Below are positions 974-29,774 of a stretch of DNA of 31,560 bases, in pieces. A program made the position numbers and the translations under genes. The stretch's first letter is position 1. Every line of letters begins with the position of its first letter. The DNA is taken from IMG/VR virus record IMGVR_UViG_3300026512_000047, positions 1-31,560 of that record; one strand, 5' to 3'. This stretch comes from a virus. The notes below the pieces were generated by a model that did no database searches, was not told where the DNA came from, and worked only from the letters and a program-made list of their open reading frames with translations.

Positions 974-1612
974 TTATGATGAAACAATTTTTTGAATTTT
1001 CCATTCAGAAGGAATATCCATCAATGATCCATCAAAAACATCATCAAGATCATCTCTTAAATGAGTAATAATCCATTTTGATAAATTACATTCTATTTTT
1101 GAATGATTAAAAGCTCGTTTTGCTGAAATTAATTTTTCAATTTTCCATTTCGACAATCCTGTGATTTTACCTGAGTGCATAAATGCATAATCAATATATT
1201 GTATATTTTTTGTAAACCAATTTGACAAATCACATTCAATATTTGAATTATAAAAAATACCAGAAATATCAATAAGTGATAATGTTTTCCATTTCGATAA
1301 ATTTTGATTTTTAATAAACGAAGAACCAAACGTCCATCTCATATATTTAACATTAGATACATCGATATTTTCAATAATAATATTTGAATAACAAGAATCA
1401 AATGTATAATTCATACTAATAACATTAGATGTATCCCAATTAGATAAATCTATATCAGAATCAATATTATCATACTTAAATCCAAAAAACAACCAATCTA
1501 AATCTGTTACATTGGAAATATCAATATTTTCAAATTCTTCTTTAGATATAGAATTCACACTTAATTTTTCAACATATTCACGCAATTCATTTTTGGAATA
1601 TACTTTTATCAT
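974..1612 (-). CDS. BspA/DUF285-type leucine-rich repeat protein, intracellular form
   Basis: I choose the ATG at 1612 (MIKVYSKNEL) because AGAGG lies about 9 nt upstream; an ATG 30 nt further upstream lacks a ribosome binding site. The 212-residue protein carries degenerate tandem repeats of about 20-25 residues built on the pattern DLSNWDTSNV...M...F, for example NWDTSNVISMNYTF, IDVSNVKYMRWTF, LSKWKTLSLIDISGIF, LSNWFTKNIQYIDYAF and LSKWKIEKLISAKRAF. This is the signature of the BspA/DUF285 leucine-rich repeats common in Mycoplasma, Listeria and gut Firmicutes surface proteins. There is no signal peptide or anchor, so it probably stays in the cytoplasm or rides in the virion. In phages such repeats are usually of unknown role. 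Confident on the fold family, not on function. Confidence 0.8.
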   Translation of the reverse strand: MIKVYSKNELREYVEKLSVNSISKEEFENIDISNVTDLDWLFFGFKYDNIDSDIDLSNWDTSNVISMNYTFDSCYSNIIIENIDVSNVKYMRWTFGSSFIKNQNLSKWKTLSLIDISGIFYNSNIECDLSNWFTKNIQYIDYAFMHSGKITGLSKWKIEKLISAKRAFNHSKIECNLSKWIITHLRDDLDDVFDGSLMDIPSEWKIQKIVSS

Positions 1613-1696
1613 AATATTAAACCTCTTGATTAAATCAATCATATATTAAATTGTATTTCTTATACAAAAAAAATAAAAATAATTTATTGTTATGAA

Positions 1697-1746: not shown

Positions 1747-2031
1747 TTAAATCTTATTTACTTTGTAGATGCTTAACCCAATAAACCTCTTCCGAAGTTC
1801 GTCAAGGTTTAATTCTTTTCCCCTATCATCCGAACTGAGTTTTAGATCTGCTACAATCACAGCTTTACACTCAGATGCTAACGACAGAGGAAGTACACCA
1901 GCGACAACCTTCCCACGAACTTCATCTGAAGTTGTATGAGTTACGACTTTTGCATTATCAACATCGATCCCATTTTCCCGCAGCAACTCAACAGTTGCAG
2001 GATGTCTTGTGACTACGATATCAACTTTCAT
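1747..2031 (-). CDS. csx16: Csx16 (VVA1548) family CRISPR-associated protein, phage-encoded
   Basis: The 94-residue protein matches the Csx16/VVA1548 pattern along its length: VVTRHPATVELL near residues 6-17 (TRH at 8-10), then RGKVVAGVLPLSLASEC at 39-55 (family pattern: RGkvViGtLP.hLAaE), then SSDDRGKELNLDEL at 66-79. Length is typical of the family (about 90-110 aa). Csx16 is normally found as an ancillary gene of type III CRISPR loci. From memory, recent work assigns ring-nuclease activity on cyclic oligoadenylate to it, which would switch off type III signalling; this should be confirmed. Here it is the last gene of a cassette in a phage, with no cas effector genes, so an anti-CRISPR role is inferred. 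A purine-rich GAGGGGG precedes the ATG. Its GC is visibly higher than that of the tail genes, suggesting transfer. Confidence 0.85.
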   Translation of the reverse strand: MKVDIVVTRHPATVELLRENGIDVDNAKVVTHTTSDEVRGKVVAGVLPLSLASECKAVIVADLKLSSDDRGKELNLDELRKRFIGLSIYKVNKI

Positions 2032-2083: not shown

Positions 2084-2117
2084 AGTAAAGGATCAGATAT
2101 ATGTCTGATCCTTTACT
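2084..2117. terminator. 14-bp inverted repeat upstream of csx16 (possible terminator or attenuator)
   Basis: AGTAAAGGATCAGA (2084-2097) and TCTGATCCTTTACT (2104-2117) are exact reverse complements around a 6-nt loop. It lies between the 211-residue gene (stop at 2218) and the csx16 start at 2031. No good T run follows on either strand, so a terminator function is only moderately supported; it could attenuate read-through into csx16. Confidence 0.45.
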
Positions 2118-2118
2118 A

Positions 2119-2214
2119 TACCTTCCGGCACAATATTTGTATTGGAATAGACATTTTGATATTCGCACCTTTAACCCGTTGTGCATTTAACGGACACAAT
2201 ATCAAATTAAGCAG
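2119..2214 (+). repeat. Decayed CRISPR-like repeat pair, same 66-nt period as the mini-array
   Basis: 2119-2148 shares CACAA-Y-ATTTGTATTG with the repeat at 4221-4250 (19 of 30 positions identical overall, 15 of 16 in the core). 2185-2214 starts with ATTTAAC..ACACAA.AT, matching the 5' half of the same repeat (17 of 30 overall). The two starts are exactly 66 nt apart, the same 30+36 period as the intact pair, leaving a 36-nt spacer-like segment at 2149-2184. The whole element sits between the stop codon of the 211-residue gene and the inverted repeat before csx16. The match is seen in the sequence; calling it a degenerate array is inference. Confidence 0.5.
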
Positions 2215-2217
2215 ATT

Positions 2218-2853
2218 TTATATAATATCATTAAGGCATTTTTTACTAATGACGCCGGACTCAGTTGCTTTTTTAATTTCCTCTATATCTAGCGGTTTTT
2301 TTATGTCGTCGATTATACAACAAAGTTGCTTTTCCCTGTTGATTTTAAACTTTTTGAGCTTACGCAACAAAAAGCATAATATTTTTATAAATTCATCCGG
2401 CTTAATAGAACCTCTTCGCTCCTCAGAACTAGAAAATTCTATTATTTTTAATCTGTTTAATTCTTTTAATATTGAGACAAAGTAGTCATTAAGTGAACCG
2501 TCTACTTGCAGACTGAACATCATATTTCCAGGATACTGATCCAAACAGAAATATGCAGATGTTGCGTCGGATGCACTGCTTTCATAGAAATAGACTTCTT
2601 CCCATCTATTCCTCGTCTTCAAAAAATATAAGATAAGATTTTTAAGTCTATCAATTGATTCTTCAATTTCATTTTCTTTAAATATGGTATAGATAATTGA
2701 ATGTCCTTGTCGAAGATACCCATAAGTTTTTAGGGCTAAATATAGACCCGTTCCTCTAAAAAAGATTATATTATCATATACCTCAACACTTCCAATAATT
2801 GACTCTGCCTCTTCTTTTAAGAGGCCATTAATTTTCTGTAATTTATTATCCAC
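2218..2853 (-). CDS. Unknown cassette protein, 211 aa (candidate anti-CRISPR)
   Basis: The frame starts with GTG at 2853-2851, preceded by GGAGG with 6 nt spacing. The protein is soluble-looking and mixed alpha/beta: an N-terminal helix, IIFFRGTGLYLALKTYGYLRQG near residues 29-50, an aromatic segment RWEEVYFYESSASDATSAYFCLDQYPGNM in the middle, and a Lys-rich helical C-terminus. I recognise no family, no nuclease or HTH motif and no membrane segment. It lies between csx16 and the 176-residue gene, same strand, in the cassette that also carries CRISPR-like repeats. Guilt by association makes it a candidate anti-CRISPR or regulator, but nothing in the sequence itself proves this. Confidence 0.7.
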   Translation of the reverse strand: MDNKLQKINGLLKEEAESIIGSVEVYDNIIFFRGTGLYLALKTYGYLRQGHSIIYTIFKENEIEESIDRLKNLILYFLKTRNRWEEVYFYESSASDATSAYFCLDQYPGNMMFSLQVDGSLNDYFVSILKELNRLKIIEFSSSEERRGSIKPDEFIKILCFLLRKLKKFKINREKQLCCIIDDIKKPLDIEEIKKATESGVISKKCLNDII

Positions 2854-2908: not shown

Positions 2909-3439
2909 TTAACAGTCCTCCAAGTCATTTTCTACCCCATTTTCTTTGAGAAATACTTTAGGAAGCCAGAAGTCAGGTTCTACCTGCTTGTATCTCACAA
3001 CGAGTAGGTCAGACCTAAATCTGACTCCATACTCATCGATATTATGGTCCAACCACTTTGGGTAACTAAACACAACCCAAAACGGATTCCCTTTTTTAGC
3101 CCAGTTAGGGAGCATCTCCTCAACTGGTCTAAAAATGTCAATTACTTTTTTTGCCGGGCACAATGCCTGTATTGTGCCCGGCAAAAGTTCTCCTGCCAAC
3201 ATAGGTATATTCCCTCTCTCGAAGAAGAGCATACTGTATTTTCTGTTTCTCGCAAATAGAAACTCCTCCTCTGGGTCACACCAAATTATGGGAGTTTCTA
3301 TGTTGACTTTATAAGGTTTCTGAAAGTTTCTCCCAGAAATCTTATAGAAAACACTTTCGTGTGATATGATGTCAATATCAGTTGACATCTTTAATGAATT
3401 CATTATTGCATTAAGTATCCTGAATTGAGACAGATTCAT
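2909..3439 (-). CDS. Unknown cassette protein, 176 aa, with an embedded repeat-like palindrome
   Basis: Complete frame with AGGAGG 6 nt before the ATG. Trp- and Pro-rich: IIWCDPEEEFLFARNRKYSMLFFERGNIPML near residues 51-81, NWAKKGNPFWVVFSYPKWLDHNIDEYGVRFRSDLLVV near 112-148, and DFWLP near the C-terminus. It is likely a compact beta-rich domain. No family recognised. The segment LLPGTIQALCPAKK is encoded by a 38-nt palindrome (3149-3186) that resembles the nearby CRISPR-like repeats, an unusual constraint within a coding region. It is one of four unknown genes between the mini-array and csx16. GC is higher than in the phage tail genes, consistent with acquisition by transfer. Function unknown. 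Confidence 0.72.
   Translation of the reverse strand: MNLSQFRILNAIMNSLKMSTDIDIISHESVFYKISGRNFQKPYKVNIETPIIWCDPEEEFLFARNRKYSMLFFERGNIPMLAGELLPGTIQALCPAKKVIDIFRPVEEMLPNWAKKGNPFWVVFSYPKWLDHNIDEYGVRFRSDLLVVRYKQVEPDFWLPKVFLKENGVENDLEDC
3149..3186. repeat. 16-bp-stem palindrome resembling the CRISPR-like repeat, inside a gene
   Basis: TTTTGCCGGGCACAAT (3149-3164) and ATTGTGCCCGGCAAAA (3171-3186) are perfect reverse complements with the loop GCCTGT. Aligned to the repeat at 4221-4250, it keeps CACAA and TGTATTG at the same spacing (12 of 16 core positions, 17 of 30 overall). It lies within the coding sequence of the 176-residue protein and has no partner 66 nt away on either side. It could be a solitary repeat unit, a regulator-binding site or an intragenic terminator-like hairpin. 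Confidence 0.5.
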
Positions 3440-3496: not shown

Positions 3497-4123
3497 TTAT
3501 TCATAAAATTCCTTTTCTTCCTTATACAGGAAAAAATCTACCAACGCTTTATTTTTTTTATAATCGGCCATTGAATTAATAATTTTAATTATATGGCCTA
3601 TTATAAAAGCTACGTTGGTATTTATACTTATCTGTGGTATTTTGAAAACACATGATGGTAATGAAACAAAAGCACCAGGAATTCCAATGCCATTTTTTTC
3701 TGTAATTATATTTTTAAATAATGAGGTTGCTTCCTCAAACCTCCTTTCAATTATAGCGTCCACTATTTTTTTTAAGTTATTATCCCACCTCCATTCTGAT
3801 AAAAGTCGATTTACAAAGCTATCTATAGATTTTTTAATACGATATAAATTATGGGACGTTAAATCGACTTTATACAAAAATTTATCTATTTCTTCTTTAG
3901 GTAAACATTTGGGAAGTACAAAAACTATTCTCGTTACATCATATGTTGGAAGACAGTAGATGTTTGTCAATTTCTTATAAACGAGAATATTTTGTTTTCC
4001 TTCTTTTCCGATGTAAGCATTATAACCTTCATCTTTACTTGGCATTTCATAATAATATGAATACGTCAAACATTTTTTCGGCGACTTCTCTAATAGAGCT
4101 AACTTTATAATAATGTTTTGCAT
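3497..4123 (-). CDS. Unknown cassette protein, 208 aa
   Basis: The ATG at 4123 has GGAG 8 nt upstream and lies inside the end of the 50-residue gene, in another frame (77 nt overlap), which suggests translational coupling. The protein starts with a beta-rich region (MQNIIIKLALLEKS, YNAYIGKEGKQNILVYKKL, VTRIVFVLPKCLP) and continues with long helices (HNLYRIKKSIDSFVNRLLSEWRWDNNLKKIVDAIIERRFEEATSLFKNII). It ends with a hydrophobic, Gly/Ile-rich stretch (NTNVAFIIGHIIKIINSM) and a charged tail. I recognise no family. Position next to the CRISPR-like mini-array and upstream of csx16 makes it a candidate anti-CRISPR or regulator; the sequence alone does not show this. Confidence 0.68.
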   Translation of the reverse strand: MQNIIIKLALLEKSPKKCLTYSYYYEMPSKDEGYNAYIGKEGKQNILVYKKLTNIYCLPTYDVTRIVFVLPKCLPKEEIDKFLYKVDLTSHNLYRIKKSIDSFVNRLLSEWRWDNNLKKIVDAIIERRFEEATSLFKNIITEKNGIGIPGAFVSLPSCVFKIPQISINTNVAFIIGHIIKIINSMADYKKNKALVDFFLYKEEKEFYE

Positions 4124-4199
4124 TTTTGAACTCCATTTCTAAATCAAAAAGTGGATATTTTCTCTTTAAAATATCCAGAAAATCAATTAATAACATCAT
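4047..4199 (-). CDS. Small unknown protein, 50 aa, first gene of the cassette
   Basis: GGGAGG followed 5 nt later by two ATG codons fixes the start at 4199 (MMLLIDFLDILKRKYPLF). The frame stays open upstream through both CRISPR-like repeats, where each repeat encodes MLCWLN in this frame, but no ribosome binding site precedes those ATGs. The 50-residue product is amphipathic and helical with several Leu/Ile/Phe (LLIDFLDIL, SSIREVAEKMFDVFILL) and no clear membrane span. It overlaps the next gene by 77 nt. A 9-bp inverted repeat (4153-4161/4168-4176) lies in it. Small first genes of this kind are often regulators or anti-CRISPRs in such cassettes, but no HTH is evident. Confidence 0.5.
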   Translation of the reverse strand: MMLLIDFLDILKRKYPLFDLEMEFKNAKHYYKVSSIREVAEKMFDVFILL

Positions 4200-4220: not shown

Positions 4221-4316
4221 ATTTAACCAACACAACATTTGTATTGAAACGATACTAAATCGAAAAAAAACGTAAGATCTATAAAAATTTAACCAACACA
4301 ACATTTGTGTTGAAAT
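4221..4316 (+). CRISPR. CRISPR-like mini-array: two 30-nt repeats, one 36-nt spacer
   Basis: Repeat 1 at 4221-4250 and repeat 2 at 4287-4316 are identical at 28 of 30 positions, starting ATTTAACCAA and continuing CACAACATTTGTATTGAAAC in repeat 1. Repeat 2 differs by A to G in the stem and C to T at its last base. The 36-nt segment between them (4251-4286) is unique in the window by eye. Repeat and spacer lengths, the internal dyad (CAACACAA-CAT-TTGTGTTG) and the 3' end ATTGAAAC, the usual 8-nt crRNA handle of type I and III systems, all fit CRISPR. Repeat 2 being altered at its 3' end fits a terminal repeat read on the plus strand. No cas genes are present, so it would rely on host Cas proteins. 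The alternative is a pair of operator sites for the divergent cassette. Confidence 0.65.
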
Positions 4317-4434: not shown

Positions 4435-7400
4435 TTATATCTTTAATTCATACTCTCGCATTCGCTTAAATCTAATATTTAGCATTTCTGCCATTTTCTC
4501 TCCATCTGAAGAATCGTTATTACCACCATTATTATTAACAACACTACTGTTGTTAATATTGTTAATAACTGAAGCTGAAGTTTGCTTAAATGTATTTGCA
4601 GTCTGTACAGTAGATTCTTTTATTTCATCTATATATTTATCAATCGTTTCTATAATTTCATCAAACTTATCTGCAATACTTGTATCTGTTTCAAGCATTT
4701 TTAACTCTTCTGATTTAATTTTATTTGTTGGTAATATTTCTTTACTTTTATCAACATTTTCAGATTTTTCATTGTGTTTATTATCATTATTAAATATTTT
4801 ATCTTTCAAATAATTATAAACTAATCCATATGGTGTGTATTTAGCAACATTCTCCATTCCTGTTTTTATAGTATCAAATACATTTTCATGTTTCGTTTCT
4901 ACTTTATTTACTGCTTTTTCATTAATTTGACCATTTTCAGAAGAAACTTTTTCAATTTTATTTTCTGATGAGTTATTACCAAATAGCTTATCTTTTAAAT
5001 TCCAAGCTGCTGCATATAATTTATTTCCACCATATGTTATATATTTTCCTAAATGCTTTGGATCCCAAATAGCATCACCAATATGCCACAATAAACCATG
5101 TTTAGAAAATTCTTTATCTTGTTGAGCTATGTATTTTTGTAATGCCTCTTTACTTGAATAATCAGTTTTTGACCACTCTTTTGTTGCACCATAAGCTCCA
5201 AGTAATGCAGTTAAAGGTAAAGCTACTTTTCCTGCAACTTTTAATGCACCACTTCCCACAGTACCTAAAATTTTACCAGCATTACCTAATACATTTCCTA
5301 TAAATGACGTATCTTTAATAACATTAGCAGCTTTACCTGCTAGATTTGTACCTTGTGCAACTTTACCAGTAATATCAAATCCTTTTACAACATCACTAGC
5401 CTTACTTGTAATATTTGTCACTGTTGAAGTATGTTTAATTGCTTCTGCAGCTTTTGCAGTTTTAGCAGCAGCTTCTACTGTCTTTTCAGCTTTAGAACCA
5501 AAACCAAGAAAAGCTTTAATTTTAGAAATTAATTTAGGTAATGCTATTGTGATACCTGCAACAATAGCGTTCTTTATTGCTCCAGTTATGCCACCAACAA
5601 AGCCACCTATAGTAGAAAATATTCCCTTTATTTTTTGCCACGTTACATATTCAAAAAATTTCTTTTTCAAAGATGATAAACCCTTGGACATCTTTCCTGT
5701 CAACTTATTCTGAAATTCTAATAATGATCTAACAGCCTTATCACGTTTCTCACGCATTTTTTCCATATTCAATATTCTATTATTTAATGATTCAGTATTA
5801 TCTTTTTGTTTTTCATTCAATTTAGTATCTTCTTTAATATTCTCTGCAATTATCTTGAGCTGCTTATTATTATCTTTATCAATCTTCATTTTCTCTTCTT
5901 CTATTGATGTTTCAAATAAACCAGGTAACAGTAATGATCCTACAGTTTTTGCACCACTTTTAGCAACTGTTGTAACACCTGATGTTATTTTTGATGTTGT
6001 TCCGGCTACTCCTTTAGCAGTTCCTGAAATTAAGTTTTTCCATTCCTTAGCTTCGCCCTTTATTGGATTAAAAATCAAATCTTTAAAAGCTTTACCGTAA
6101 TCTGATACTCTGAATAAATTAGAAATTTTATCTGTAATATTAAAAAACGTATTATTTAACCAAGATTTTGCACCTGTTAACCCACTTTCTTTAGTTTGTG
6201 AAATTAAACCACCTACACCTTTAAAAATACTTTCAATTGGTTTATATATAAATTTAGATAGTTTCATTACCATACTTGGTGTTTTTAATGCAAAAGAAAT
6301 TACAGTTCTTGTACCCATACTAATCAATTTAATTGTTTGTCCAACATCATTCATAACTGTAAATGCAAGTTTCTTTATAATAGAAGGTGAATTAATTATA
6401 GTTCTAGCAACAGTTCTACCAAGTAAAAACGGAATATTTATTGTATGATACAATAATGGCATGTGTTTACCAATAAATCCCCATGCAATTTTTGAAATAC
6501 TTCTCTGAGATAAACCTTCTGACATCATTAATGTTGGACTCAATGTAACTGCCATGTCTGCAACTGTTTTTGCTAAAAATTTATCATATTGTACATCTTT
6601 AGCATATTCTTTCTGATATTTTTTATTATACTGTTGTTTTAATGAAAATAATGATAACTCTATCATTCCTTTCAGAGACTTTGTTTTTTCAAATGAATCT
6701 TTTATAACATCTACTTGATCTTCAATTATAGATACACCATTCTGCATTATATTTTGCGAATCATTCTTTATATTTTCAACTTTATCATCAATACTTTCTT
6801 TTGTTTTCTCTATTATATTTTTATTTGCTTTTGATTGTTCCTCAACATCAGAAATAGATTGTTGTTGTAAATCTTTTTCCTCTACTTCTAATGTAGATTG
6901 CTTTGATTTACCCGATTTAATTTTTTTACTTACAAATTCTTTTACAACTTTTCCGGTATCATATGCAACAACTGCTGGACCAAGTGGTGTAAAATAAATA
7001 AGTGATTTTCCAATAGATTTATAATCGCCTTTCAAAAAATTCTTGAATAATGAAAAATTACCAGCAAGACTACTATTCAAAAATGGTAAAATAGTTTCAC
7101 TTGCAGTTTTAATATATGATTTATCAAGAACATTCTTACCTTCATCATTTGTCAAAAATGAGTTAGTTTTAGCACGAACACTTTCTAATGTTTTATATGC
7201 AGAACTTTCACTTATTGTTGATGATGTTTCATTAACTTTTCTATTAATTATATTTTTGATATCTTCCTTAGATTCAGCATTTTTCAATTCTTCTTTTATA
7301 TCTGAAATATTATTAATTATTGTACCGTTTATTTCTTTTATAGAAGTTTTAACTTTTTCAACATATATAGTTTCCGTTTTCTTTAAATCATCAAGTTCAG

Positions 7401-28415: not shown

Positions 28416-29774
28416 TTAAAAATCATATTCCTCCGAAGAGTTAGCATCATCTGTGTTTTCGTTTAGTGAATCATCTTCGTCAAATATATCATCAGAGTTT
28501 GTATCTTCACTTACCATTATATTATCGGATATTGATGATATAACTGAGTTAAGAATCTGTTCTTCCTCTTTTATCAATGATTCATTAATATCTTCTTCTT
28601 TCTGAGTTTCTGCTTTATCTTTTTCATCTTCTTTTTCTTCATCCTCATCCTCATCGTCTTCATCATCCTCTATATCTTCATCAAGATCATCCTCATCATC
28701 ACTATCATCAGATTCAGTTAGCATGTCAAAATCATCATCCATTAAATCATCTTCCAATAGTGGATCTGTATCAAAAAGATCATCTGACGTAGAATCAATA
28801 TCTTCATCTAAAATATCAAGATCGTCGTCAGAAACATCAATATCTTCATCTAAAATATCAAGATCGTCGTCAGAAACATCAATATCTTCATCTAAAATAT
28901 CATCTACATCGTCGAAATCTAAATCATCAGATTCTTCGATAATATCAGATTCGTTGTCAAACTCATCTAAAAATGATTCTTCAATATTATCTTCTTCGTC
29001 TTCTTCATTTTCATCATCTTCTTCTTCATCAATTTCGTCTTCATCTTCAAGATCTTTATCTTCGTCATCCTCGTCATCATCATTAATATTTCCATTATCG
29101 TCAAGATCATCATCTTCATCTTCTTCATCATCAATTTCGTCTTCATCTTCAAGATCTTTATCTTCGTCATCCTCGTCATCGAGATCATCATCATCGATAT
29201 CATCAGAAACATCAATATCTTCATCTAAAATATCATCTGTGTTGTCGAAATCTAAGTCTGAGTCTTCATTAAGTAACTCATCATCCAAATCTGTATCAAA
29301 ATCACCATCTTCATTTAAAATATCATCGGTTTCATCAATAAAATCATCAAACATATTTTCATCTAATATATCGTCGTAAATGTTATCTGTAACATTCTTA
29401 GATATATCAAATGACTCGTTAAAAATTCCGTCTACATCTGAACTAAAGTCATCGTCGCTTTCACTTAATTCATTTTTCATTTCTTCAAGTAATGCATCAA
29501 TATCTTCGTCTGATTCTGTAGATAATGACTCTTCTAATTCATTTAATGTATTATCTGCACTATTTGAATCAGATATAGAACTACCACCTTTTAACCATTT
29601 TACATACTCAGATTCATGAATATTTTCTTGTGCATCCTCTTTTTCCATATAATCTTCAAGAAGTTTTGCTACACTCTGTAGTGGTGAAAATGTATCCATC
29701 TGACTTTTGCCGTTCCAGTATCTTATTTTATCCTGTGGTGTCGATTGCTTTTTAGGATTTTTAATATTATCCAT
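28416..29774 (-). CDS. Extremely acidic, internally repeated protein, 452 aa
   Basis: AGGAGG precedes the ATG. The first 70 residues look ordinary (NPKKQSTPQDKIRYWNGKSQ, SVAKLLEDYMEKEDAQ, SEYVKWLKGG). The remaining 380 are dominated by Asp, Glu, Ser, Ile and Leu in repeats such as DILDEDIDVSDDDL and DEDDEDKDLEDEDEIDDEED. At the DNA level there are 42-bp tandem copies at 28795-28836 and 28837-28878, a partial third copy after that, and two exact 51-bp copies (29028-29078 and 29130-29180). Such acidic proteins occur as phage prohead core/scaffold components (T4 gp67 is a small acidic example) or as DNA mimics. Neither can be shown here. Its place in the late block argues for a virion-assembly role. 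Plus-strand Ser-rich frames opposite it are artefacts. Confidence 0.8.
   Translation of the reverse strand: MDNIKNPKKQSTPQDKIRYWNGKSQMDTFSPLQSVAKLLEDYMEKEDAQENIHESEYVKWLKGGSSISDSNSADNTLNELEESLSTESDEDIDALLEEMKNELSESDDDFSSDVDGIFNESFDISKNVTDNIYDDILDENMFDDFIDETDDILNEDGDFDTDLDDELLNEDSDLDFDNTDDILDEDIDVSDDIDDDDLDDEDDEDKDLEDEDEIDDEEDEDDDLDDNGNINDDDEDDEDKDLEDEDEIDEEEDDENEEDEEDNIEESFLDEFDNESDIIEESDDLDFDDVDDILDEDIDVSDDDLDILDEDIDVSDDDLDILDEDIDSTSDDLFDTDPLLEDDLMDDDFDMLTESDDSDDEDDLDEDIEDDEDDEDEDEEKEDEKDKAETQKEEDINESLIKEEEQILNSVISSISDNIMVSEDTNSDDIFDEDDSLNENTDDANSSEEYDF
28795..28902 (-). repeat. 42-bp tandem repeat in the acidic gene
   Basis: Units at 28795-28836 and 28837-28878 are identical 42-mers, followed by a partial copy to about 28902; a related copy begins near 29211. 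Each unit encodes 14 residues of the form DILDEDIDVSDDDL, so copy number can change without a frameshift. Confidence 0.85.
29028..29180 (-). repeat. Two exact 51-bp direct repeats in the acidic gene
   Basis: 29028-29078 and 29130-29180 are identical, 102 nt apart, encoding the D/E-rich part with DEDKDLEDEDEID. They fit recent duplication or unequal recombination within the gene. Confidence 0.8.

What the first reader, a model, noticed from the sequence alone, without database searches (positions are those of the whole stretch)
4221..4316. Phage-borne CRISPR mini-array with a single spacer and no cas genes
Two 30-nt repeats (28/30 identical) flank a 36-nt unique spacer, and repeat 1 ends in ATTGAAAC, the usual type I/III crRNA handle. 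The second repeat is altered at its 3' end, as terminal repeats are. Arrays without cas genes in viruses are known (archaeal viruses and some huge phages) and are thought to use host Cas proteins against competing phages. Here the array abuts a cassette that ends in csx16, which suggests a link with a host type III or mixed type I/III system.
Basis: partly seen in the sequence, partly recalled or inferred. Interest (0 to 1): 0.85.

Follow-up and report, generated by a model that had tools for sequence, protein, structure and literature searches.

The report
Phage mini-CRISPR arrays beside csx16
A fragment of a large tailed phage carries one intact and one decayed miniature CRISPR array, without any cas genes, on either side of a small gene cassette next to a predicted enzyme that switches off type III CRISPR signalling, so the phage probably borrows or blocks its host's CRISPR machinery.

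Summary
In detail: two 30-nt repeats (28/30 identical) flank a 36-nt unique sequence at 4221-4316; simulated sequence gives nothing comparable. The CRISPR reading has independent support. The type I-B array of Sulfurospirillum sp. 'SP' (plasmid pSulSP, beside cas6-cas7-cas5-cas3-cas4-cas1-cas2) has a 30-nt repeat 25/30 identical in register, with the same 66-nt period and 34-38-nt spacers.

New here: a second, decayed single-spacer array (probable) in the same orientation and period at 2119-2214, 87 nt upstream of csx16. The two arrays bracket four genes of unknown function. Csx16 (a cA4 ring nuclease family) is well supported by sequence and by a confident model.

Not shown: the exact host repeat, the target of either spacer, transcription, or any close relative of the phage. 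Best reading: leaderless mini-arrays whose RNA is processed by host Cas6 and loaded on host effectors, to target competitors or to sequester the effectors, in a counter-CRISPR island with Csx16. Phage mini-arrays are a known kind; the paired arrangement beside a ring-nuclease gene is the unusual part.

The parts
4221..4250 (+). Array 1, repeat 1 (30 nt); stem ACAA/TTGT at repeat positions 12-15/19-22, 8-nt handle ATTGAAAC at 4243-4250
   Evidence: 25/30 identical to the Sulfurospirillum I-B repeat
4251..4286 (+). Array 1 spacer S1, 36 nt, no protospacer found
4287..4316 (+). Array 1, repeat 2 (terminal); A23G and C30T relative to repeat 1; perfect 8-bp hairpin
   Evidence: on the minus strand also scored as terminator-like
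4243..4308 (+). Predicted 66-nt crRNA after Cas6 cleavage in both repeats (handle + S1 + repeat 2 positions 1-22)
   Evidence: Inference from the stem position and general knowledge of Cas6 cleavage at the 3' base of the repeat stem
2119..2148 (+). Array 2 (degenerate), repeat copy A: positions 7-30 kept, hairpin kept (-6.2 kcal/mol), handle ATTGGAAT
   Evidence: best hit in the window after array 1 with outside CRISPR repeats only (1 of 1500 simulations reach it)
2149..2184 (+). Array 2 spacer-like interval S2, 36 nt, 42% G+C in a 27% G+C phage
   Evidence: no protospacer in named phages or plasmids
2185..2214 (+). Array 2, repeat copy B: positions 1-18 kept (15/18 to array 1), 3' half lost
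   Evidence: exact 66-nt register with copy A
1747..2031 (-). csx16, 94 aa, predicted cA4 ring nuclease
   Evidence: Pfam 2.9e-17; PADLOC 6.4e-16; conserved residues in 15 viral homologues; model pLDDT 93; best structural neighbours are CARF and ring-nuclease proteins, Z up to 4.8
2218..2853 (-). Gene of unknown function between the arrays (211 aa)
   Evidence: No family match
2909..3439 (-). Gene of unknown function between the arrays (176 aa)
   Evidence: No family match
3497..4123 (-). Gene of unknown function between the arrays (208 aa)
   Evidence: No credible family match; structure prediction failed
4047..4199 (-). Small gene (50 aa) with a Shine-Dalgarno-like GGGAGG upstream of its ATG; its start is 21 nt from repeat 1
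   Evidence: Sequence; no family match

Best explanation
The locus is a genuine cas-less mini-CRISPR array (shown by repeat anatomy and by homology to a type I-B array), accompanied by a second, decayed mini-array 2.1 kb away beside csx16 (probable). Inferred steps: array RNA is transcribed along the + strand during infection. The host Cas6 cuts 3' of the ACAA/TTGT hairpin and leaves a 66-nt crRNA with the handle AUUGAAAC. That crRNA loads onto the host's type I-B effector, or onto a type III effector that shares the repeats. The loaded complex then either (a) attacks a competing phage or plasmid that carries the protospacer (about 45%), or (b) mainly keeps host Cas6 and effector occupied with a harmless guide, as RNA anti-CRISPRs do (about 25%). 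In parallel Csx16 would destroy cyclic tetra-adenylate made by a host type III system. Together they would form a counter-CRISPR island.
For: Repeat pair far beyond chance. 25/30 in-register identity, same 66-nt period and spacer size in the pSulSP I-B locus. With that outside repeat alone the two copies are the top hits in the window, 28.1 bits against a maximum of 18.5 in 300 simulations. The core stem ACAA/TTGT followed by an 8-nt handle is invariant or near-invariant in all related repeats. The two differences in repeat 2 fall outside the predicted crRNA. A second array in the same register and orientation. No cas genes. csx16 beside it. The related-repeat scan of viral contigs found larger cas-less arrays inside Campylobacter phage records.
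Against: No host array with the identical repeat was found; reviews say mini-array repeats are identical to those of the host (PMC11656645). No protospacer. No leader, and no promoter-like site just upstream on the + strand. Repeat 2 also reads as a minus-strand terminator. No related phage to show spacer turnover.
Confidence: 0.62

Rival explanations
1. RNA anti-CRISPR: the repeats are decoys and the spacers have no target. Their RNA occupies host Cas6 and backbone proteins and gives non-productive complexes. Array 2, with one intact hairpin and handle and a truncated second repeat, is the clearest case.
For: Array 2 begins 87 nt from the start of csx16, and racr candidates are enriched within 1 kb of anti-CRISPR genes (PMC10651486). 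No protospacer was found for either spacer. Copy A keeps the hairpin.
Against: Tested RNA anti-CRISPRs are solitary repeats; array 1 has two good repeats and a full-length spacer, which should give an ordinary crRNA.
Confidence: 0.25
2. Regulatory DNA or RNA: the palindromic repeats are a pair of operators or terminators for the minus-strand genes and have nothing to do with CRISPR.
For: Repeat 2 scores as a minus-strand terminator; the repeats lie in the intergenic space upstream of a minus-strand cassette; the core is palindromic.
Against: Identity extends over all 30 nt, well outside the palindrome. A real CRISPR repeat matches in register with the same period. The motif is not spread upstream of other genes in the window. 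Repeat 1 and copy A are not followed by a T run on the minus strand.
Confidence: 0.07
3. Non-functional remnant: CRISPR fragments picked up by recombination with a host array, now decaying.
For: Array 2 is clearly eroded; no leader or promoter was seen.
Against: Array 1 keeps both repeats almost intact, and its two changes lie outside the predicted crRNA.
Confidence: 0.15
4. CreA-like guide: the spacer directs the host effector to a partly matching site in the phage's own or the host's genome to repress a gene.
For: One-spacer, two-repeat layout as in CreTA (PMC9458426). A 14-nt seed match with one mismatch lies at 5794-5829 on the minus strand.
Against: Total and seed matches are no better than for shuffled spacers (57 and 39 of 300 reach them). 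The seed match lies inside a coding gene. There is no cas locus nearby. Host genome not available.
Confidence: 0.07

Closest known systems
Virus-borne mini-CRISPR arrays (SPV1/SPV2, PMC6858448; phage mini-arrays reviewed in PMC11656645)
   Same: One spacer, two repeats, no cas genes, intergenic; leaderless like the bacterial-phage cases described there
   Different: Target unknown; the identical host repeat not found; a second, eroded array lies nearby beside csx16
RNA anti-CRISPRs / solitary repeat units (PMC10651486)
   Same: CRISPR-repeat mimic in a phage near a predicted anti-CRISPR gene; array 2 has a single intact hairpin
   Different: Array 1 is a full repeat-spacer-repeat; no inhibition data; the subtypes tested in that paper were I-C, I-E, I-F and V-A
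Type I-B CRISPR array of Sulfurospirillum sp. 'SP' plasmid pSulSP
   Same: 30-nt repeat, 25/30 identical in register; 64-67-nt period; same hairpin core and handle position
   Different: 56 exact repeats with a complete cas operon; five repeat positions differ; none of its spacers matches the window
Phage-encoded Csx16 ring nuclease (PMC12409355)
   Same: Stand-alone Csx16 in a virus; that survey found Csx16 in two of 28,114 phage genomes
   Different: Here it lies beside mini-CRISPR arrays; no related repeats were seen near Csx16 in 20 other viral contigs
CreTA / CreA RNA (PMC9458426)
   Same: Two repeats around one spacer outside a normal array; degenerate repeats in array 2
   Different: Not linked to a cas operon; no significant match to a nearby promoter; no toxin RNA recognised

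Membership tests
Viral mini-CRISPR array | Near-identical repeats of CRISPR size around a unique spacer of similar size | tested here: met
   28/30 identical, 30/36/30 nt, beyond simulation
Viral mini-CRISPR array | Repeat homologous to a genuine cellular CRISPR repeat | tested here: met
   25/30 in register with the pSulSP I-B array
Viral mini-CRISPR array | Repeat identical to that of the host's array | tested here: inconclusive
   Host unknown; no exact match in the genome collection
Viral mini-CRISPR array | No cas genes in the virus | tested here: met
   the record is a fragment, so this holds for 31.5 kb only
Viral mini-CRISPR array | Spacer matches a competing virus | tested here: inconclusive
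   No match in named phages, plasmids or exact viral-contig scan
Viral mini-CRISPR array | Spacer changes between related viruses | tested here: inconclusive
   No related phage could be fetched
Viral mini-CRISPR array | Processed crRNA is made | not testable with these tools
   Needs RNA from infected cells
RNA anti-CRISPR (solitary repeat unit) | Solitary repeat, not part of an array | tested here: not met
   Array 1 has two repeats; array 2 has one and a half
RNA anti-CRISPR (solitary repeat unit) | Inhibits the cognate CRISPR system | not testable with these tools
   Needs a plaque or interference assay
CreTA | Linked to a cas operon and partly complementary to a nearby promoter | tested here: not met
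   No cas genes in the record; matches no better than shuffles
Csx16 ring nuclease | Csx16 sequence family | tested here: met
   PF09652 at 63 bits, cut-off 25; PADLOC 6.4e-16; the NCBIfam Csx16 model hit is below its cut-off, 24.5 against 46.35 bits
Csx16 ring nuclease | CARF-like fold | tested here: inconclusive
   Model pLDDT 93. The eight best chains are cOA-binding CARF or ring-nuclease proteins, but Z is only 3.5-4.8 and Foldseek alone gave no significant hit
Csx16 ring nuclease | Degrades cA4 | not testable with these tools
   Biochemistry needed; shown for another Csx16 in PMC12409355

The most novel reading that the evidence does not exclude
A two-layer counter-CRISPR island: phage mini-arrays feed host Cas6 and the type I-B/III effectors with phage guides, redirecting or sequestering them, while Csx16 erases the cA4 alarm that a type III effector would raise; the four unknown genes between the arrays would be further anti-CRISPR proteins.
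Probability: 0.25. Interest if true: 0.72.

Novelty: new member of a known kind. Interest (0 to 1): 0.5.

Why it matters
Phage mini-arrays have been proposed to act in competition between viruses, and solitary repeats as RNA decoys; few natural loci let the two be told apart. Here an intact array and an eroded, single-hairpin array lie 2 kb apart, with a predicted ring nuclease next to the eroded one and unknown genes between. That gives a testable locus for guide versus decoy function, a short list of anti-CRISPR candidates, and evidence for mini-arrays in a phage whose host probably has Campylobacterota-type CRISPR.

Tried and rejected
Exact and degenerate repeat scans of genome contigs and viral contigs found nothing; a paired-core pattern found only four records with Campylobacter-type arrays. 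The S1 28-mer in viral contigs and BLAST of the spacers gave no protospacer. pSulSP spacers against the window: none. CRISPR-like repeat pairs near 20 other viral csx16 genes: a few pairs in L034, L046 and L047, unlike this repeat and not inspected further. Blast hits H2-H5 to parts of the region looked like chance. CreA-like self-targeting: no better than shuffles. A whole-repeat ungapped score did not single out array 2; the local-score tests did, but they were designed after the pair had been seen. Structure of the 208-aa neighbour: pLDDT 34, not used. Foldseek alone gave no significant match for Csx16. Host relatives could not be drawn because the record is a virus. The hairpin at 3149-3186 inside gene 2909-3439 resembles the repeat core but was not counted as part of the system.

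Full report
Observation. The window is a whole IMG/VR record of 31,560 bases, probably a fragment of a larger phage with a contractile tail: sheath and baseplate proteins match PHROGs, with only distant relatives among named phages such as phiR1-37, AR9/PBS1, LPJP1 and NCTB. The two repeats at 4221-4250 and 4287-4316 are as described, 28/30 identical with a 36-nt interval. The best pair in 60 simulated sequences was 24/30.

Is it CRISPR? A sensitive BLAST of the region against 72,556 plasmids gave one hit clearly better than chance (E = 1e-3): the array of the type I-B locus on Sulfurospirillum sp. 'SP' plasmid pSulSP. Its repeat CTTGAACCGACACAAGATTTGTATTGAAAT is 25/30 identical in register, and none of 200,000 shuffles reaches that even with the last 8 nt held fixed. 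Its spacers are 34-38 nt and its period 64-67 nt. Scanning the window with this outside repeat alone, the two copies rank first at 28.1 bits; the best of 300 simulations is 18.5. Arrays found by a paired-core scan of viral contigs (GTTTGCTAATGACAATRTTTGTGTTGAAAC) share 20-21/30, and one of them lies in a record similar to phage genes on Campylobacter fetus plasmids. These alone would not be significant, but they share the invariant stem ACAA/TTGT and the 8-nt handle after it. So the repeat is of the Campylobacterota I-B style. The phage's own host remains unknown.

Anatomy. Cas6 cleavage after the stem would give a 66-nt RNA covering 4243-4308 (inference from established type I Cas6 processing). 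Both differences of repeat 2 (positions 23 and 30) lie outside that RNA. A23G makes repeat 2 a perfect 8-bp hairpin of -8.1 kcal/mol, which on the minus strand also looks like an intrinsic terminator for the upstream gene. No sigma-70-like promoter was found on the + strand between 3993 and 4535, so transcription is unproven.

A second array. Searching the window for parts of the repeat exposed 2119-2148 (positions 7-30 kept, hairpin kept at -6.2 kcal/mol) and 2185-2214 (positions 1-18 kept), 66 nt apart and on the same strand, between gene 2218-2853 and csx16. With a position model made only of Sulfurospirillum and Campylobacter repeats, 2119 is the best hit after array 1 (1 of 1500 simulations reaches its score). 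The pair statistic is reached in 0, 4 and 7 of 1500 simulations under the three models tried. A plain ungapped count did not single it out, and the statistic was chosen after seeing the pair, so I call it probable. Its 36-nt interval has 42% G+C against 27% for the phage, as a foreign spacer might; 5.7% of all 36-nt stretches of the window are as rich.

Neighbourhood. csx16 at 1747-2031 is well supported. Its model (pLDDT 93) has CARF and ring-nuclease proteins, including the viral anti-CRISPR of entry 6scf, as its eight best structural neighbours, at low Z of 3.5-4.8. Csx16 has been shown to be a cA4-specific ring nuclease and was found in only two of 28,114 phage genomes (PMC12409355). I found it in 20 IMG/VR contigs, and on plasmids and in Methanobacterium virus PhiF3 with no other cas gene annotated in the stretches examined. 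None of the 20 viral contigs shows this kind of repeat pair near it. The four genes between the arrays have no credible family match.

Function. Phage mini-arrays are described as leaderless and are thought to use host Cas proteins against related viruses (PMC6858448, PMC11656645). Solitary repeats act as RNA anti-CRISPRs and cluster with anti-CRISPR genes (PMC10651486). Array 1 fits the first kind in anatomy; array 2, with one intact hairpin, lies nearer the second. Protospacers were not found for either spacer, and self-complementarity is no better than chance.

Verdict. Observation confirmed. CRISPR identity is strongly supported. The host guess is replaced by Campylobacterota type. Function is inferred only. 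Phage mini-arrays are a known kind; the pairing of two arrays around a cassette next to a predicted ring nuclease is the part worth follow-up.

Noticed in passing
L010 (IMGVR_UViG_2654587581_000001) 5373-6721 and record positions 41836-43222; also L009 and L011: Campylobacter phage records carry CRISPR arrays (39 matching repeat pairs in L010's record) in between phage structural genes, with no Cas1 or Cas6 in the records.
   Followed up: partly
window 3149-3186: A perfect 16-bp G+C-rich hairpin (TTTTGCCGGGCACAAT / ATTGTGCCCGGCAAAA, -27.4 kcal/mol) inside gene 2909-3439; its CACAAT/ATTGTG core resembles the CRISPR repeat stem.
   Followed up: partly
window 2088-2115: A strong hairpin (-14.5 kcal/mol, z -4.5) between array 2 and the csx16 start, possibly a terminator or regulator of csx16.
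   Followed up: no
window 974-1642: A DUF285 / PARCEL-repeat protein, a family of Mycoplasma and Listeria surface proteins, directly downstream of csx16.
   Followed up: no
L028-L047: Stand-alone Csx16 genes in 20 IMG/VR contigs, one 321 kb and one 137 kb long; phage Csx16 may be more common than the two genomes reported in PMC12409355.
   Followed up: partly
window 28416-29774: A 452-aa very acidic, D/E-rich repetitive protein; its repeats are the only others in the window that rival the array for direct-repeat score.
   Followed up: no
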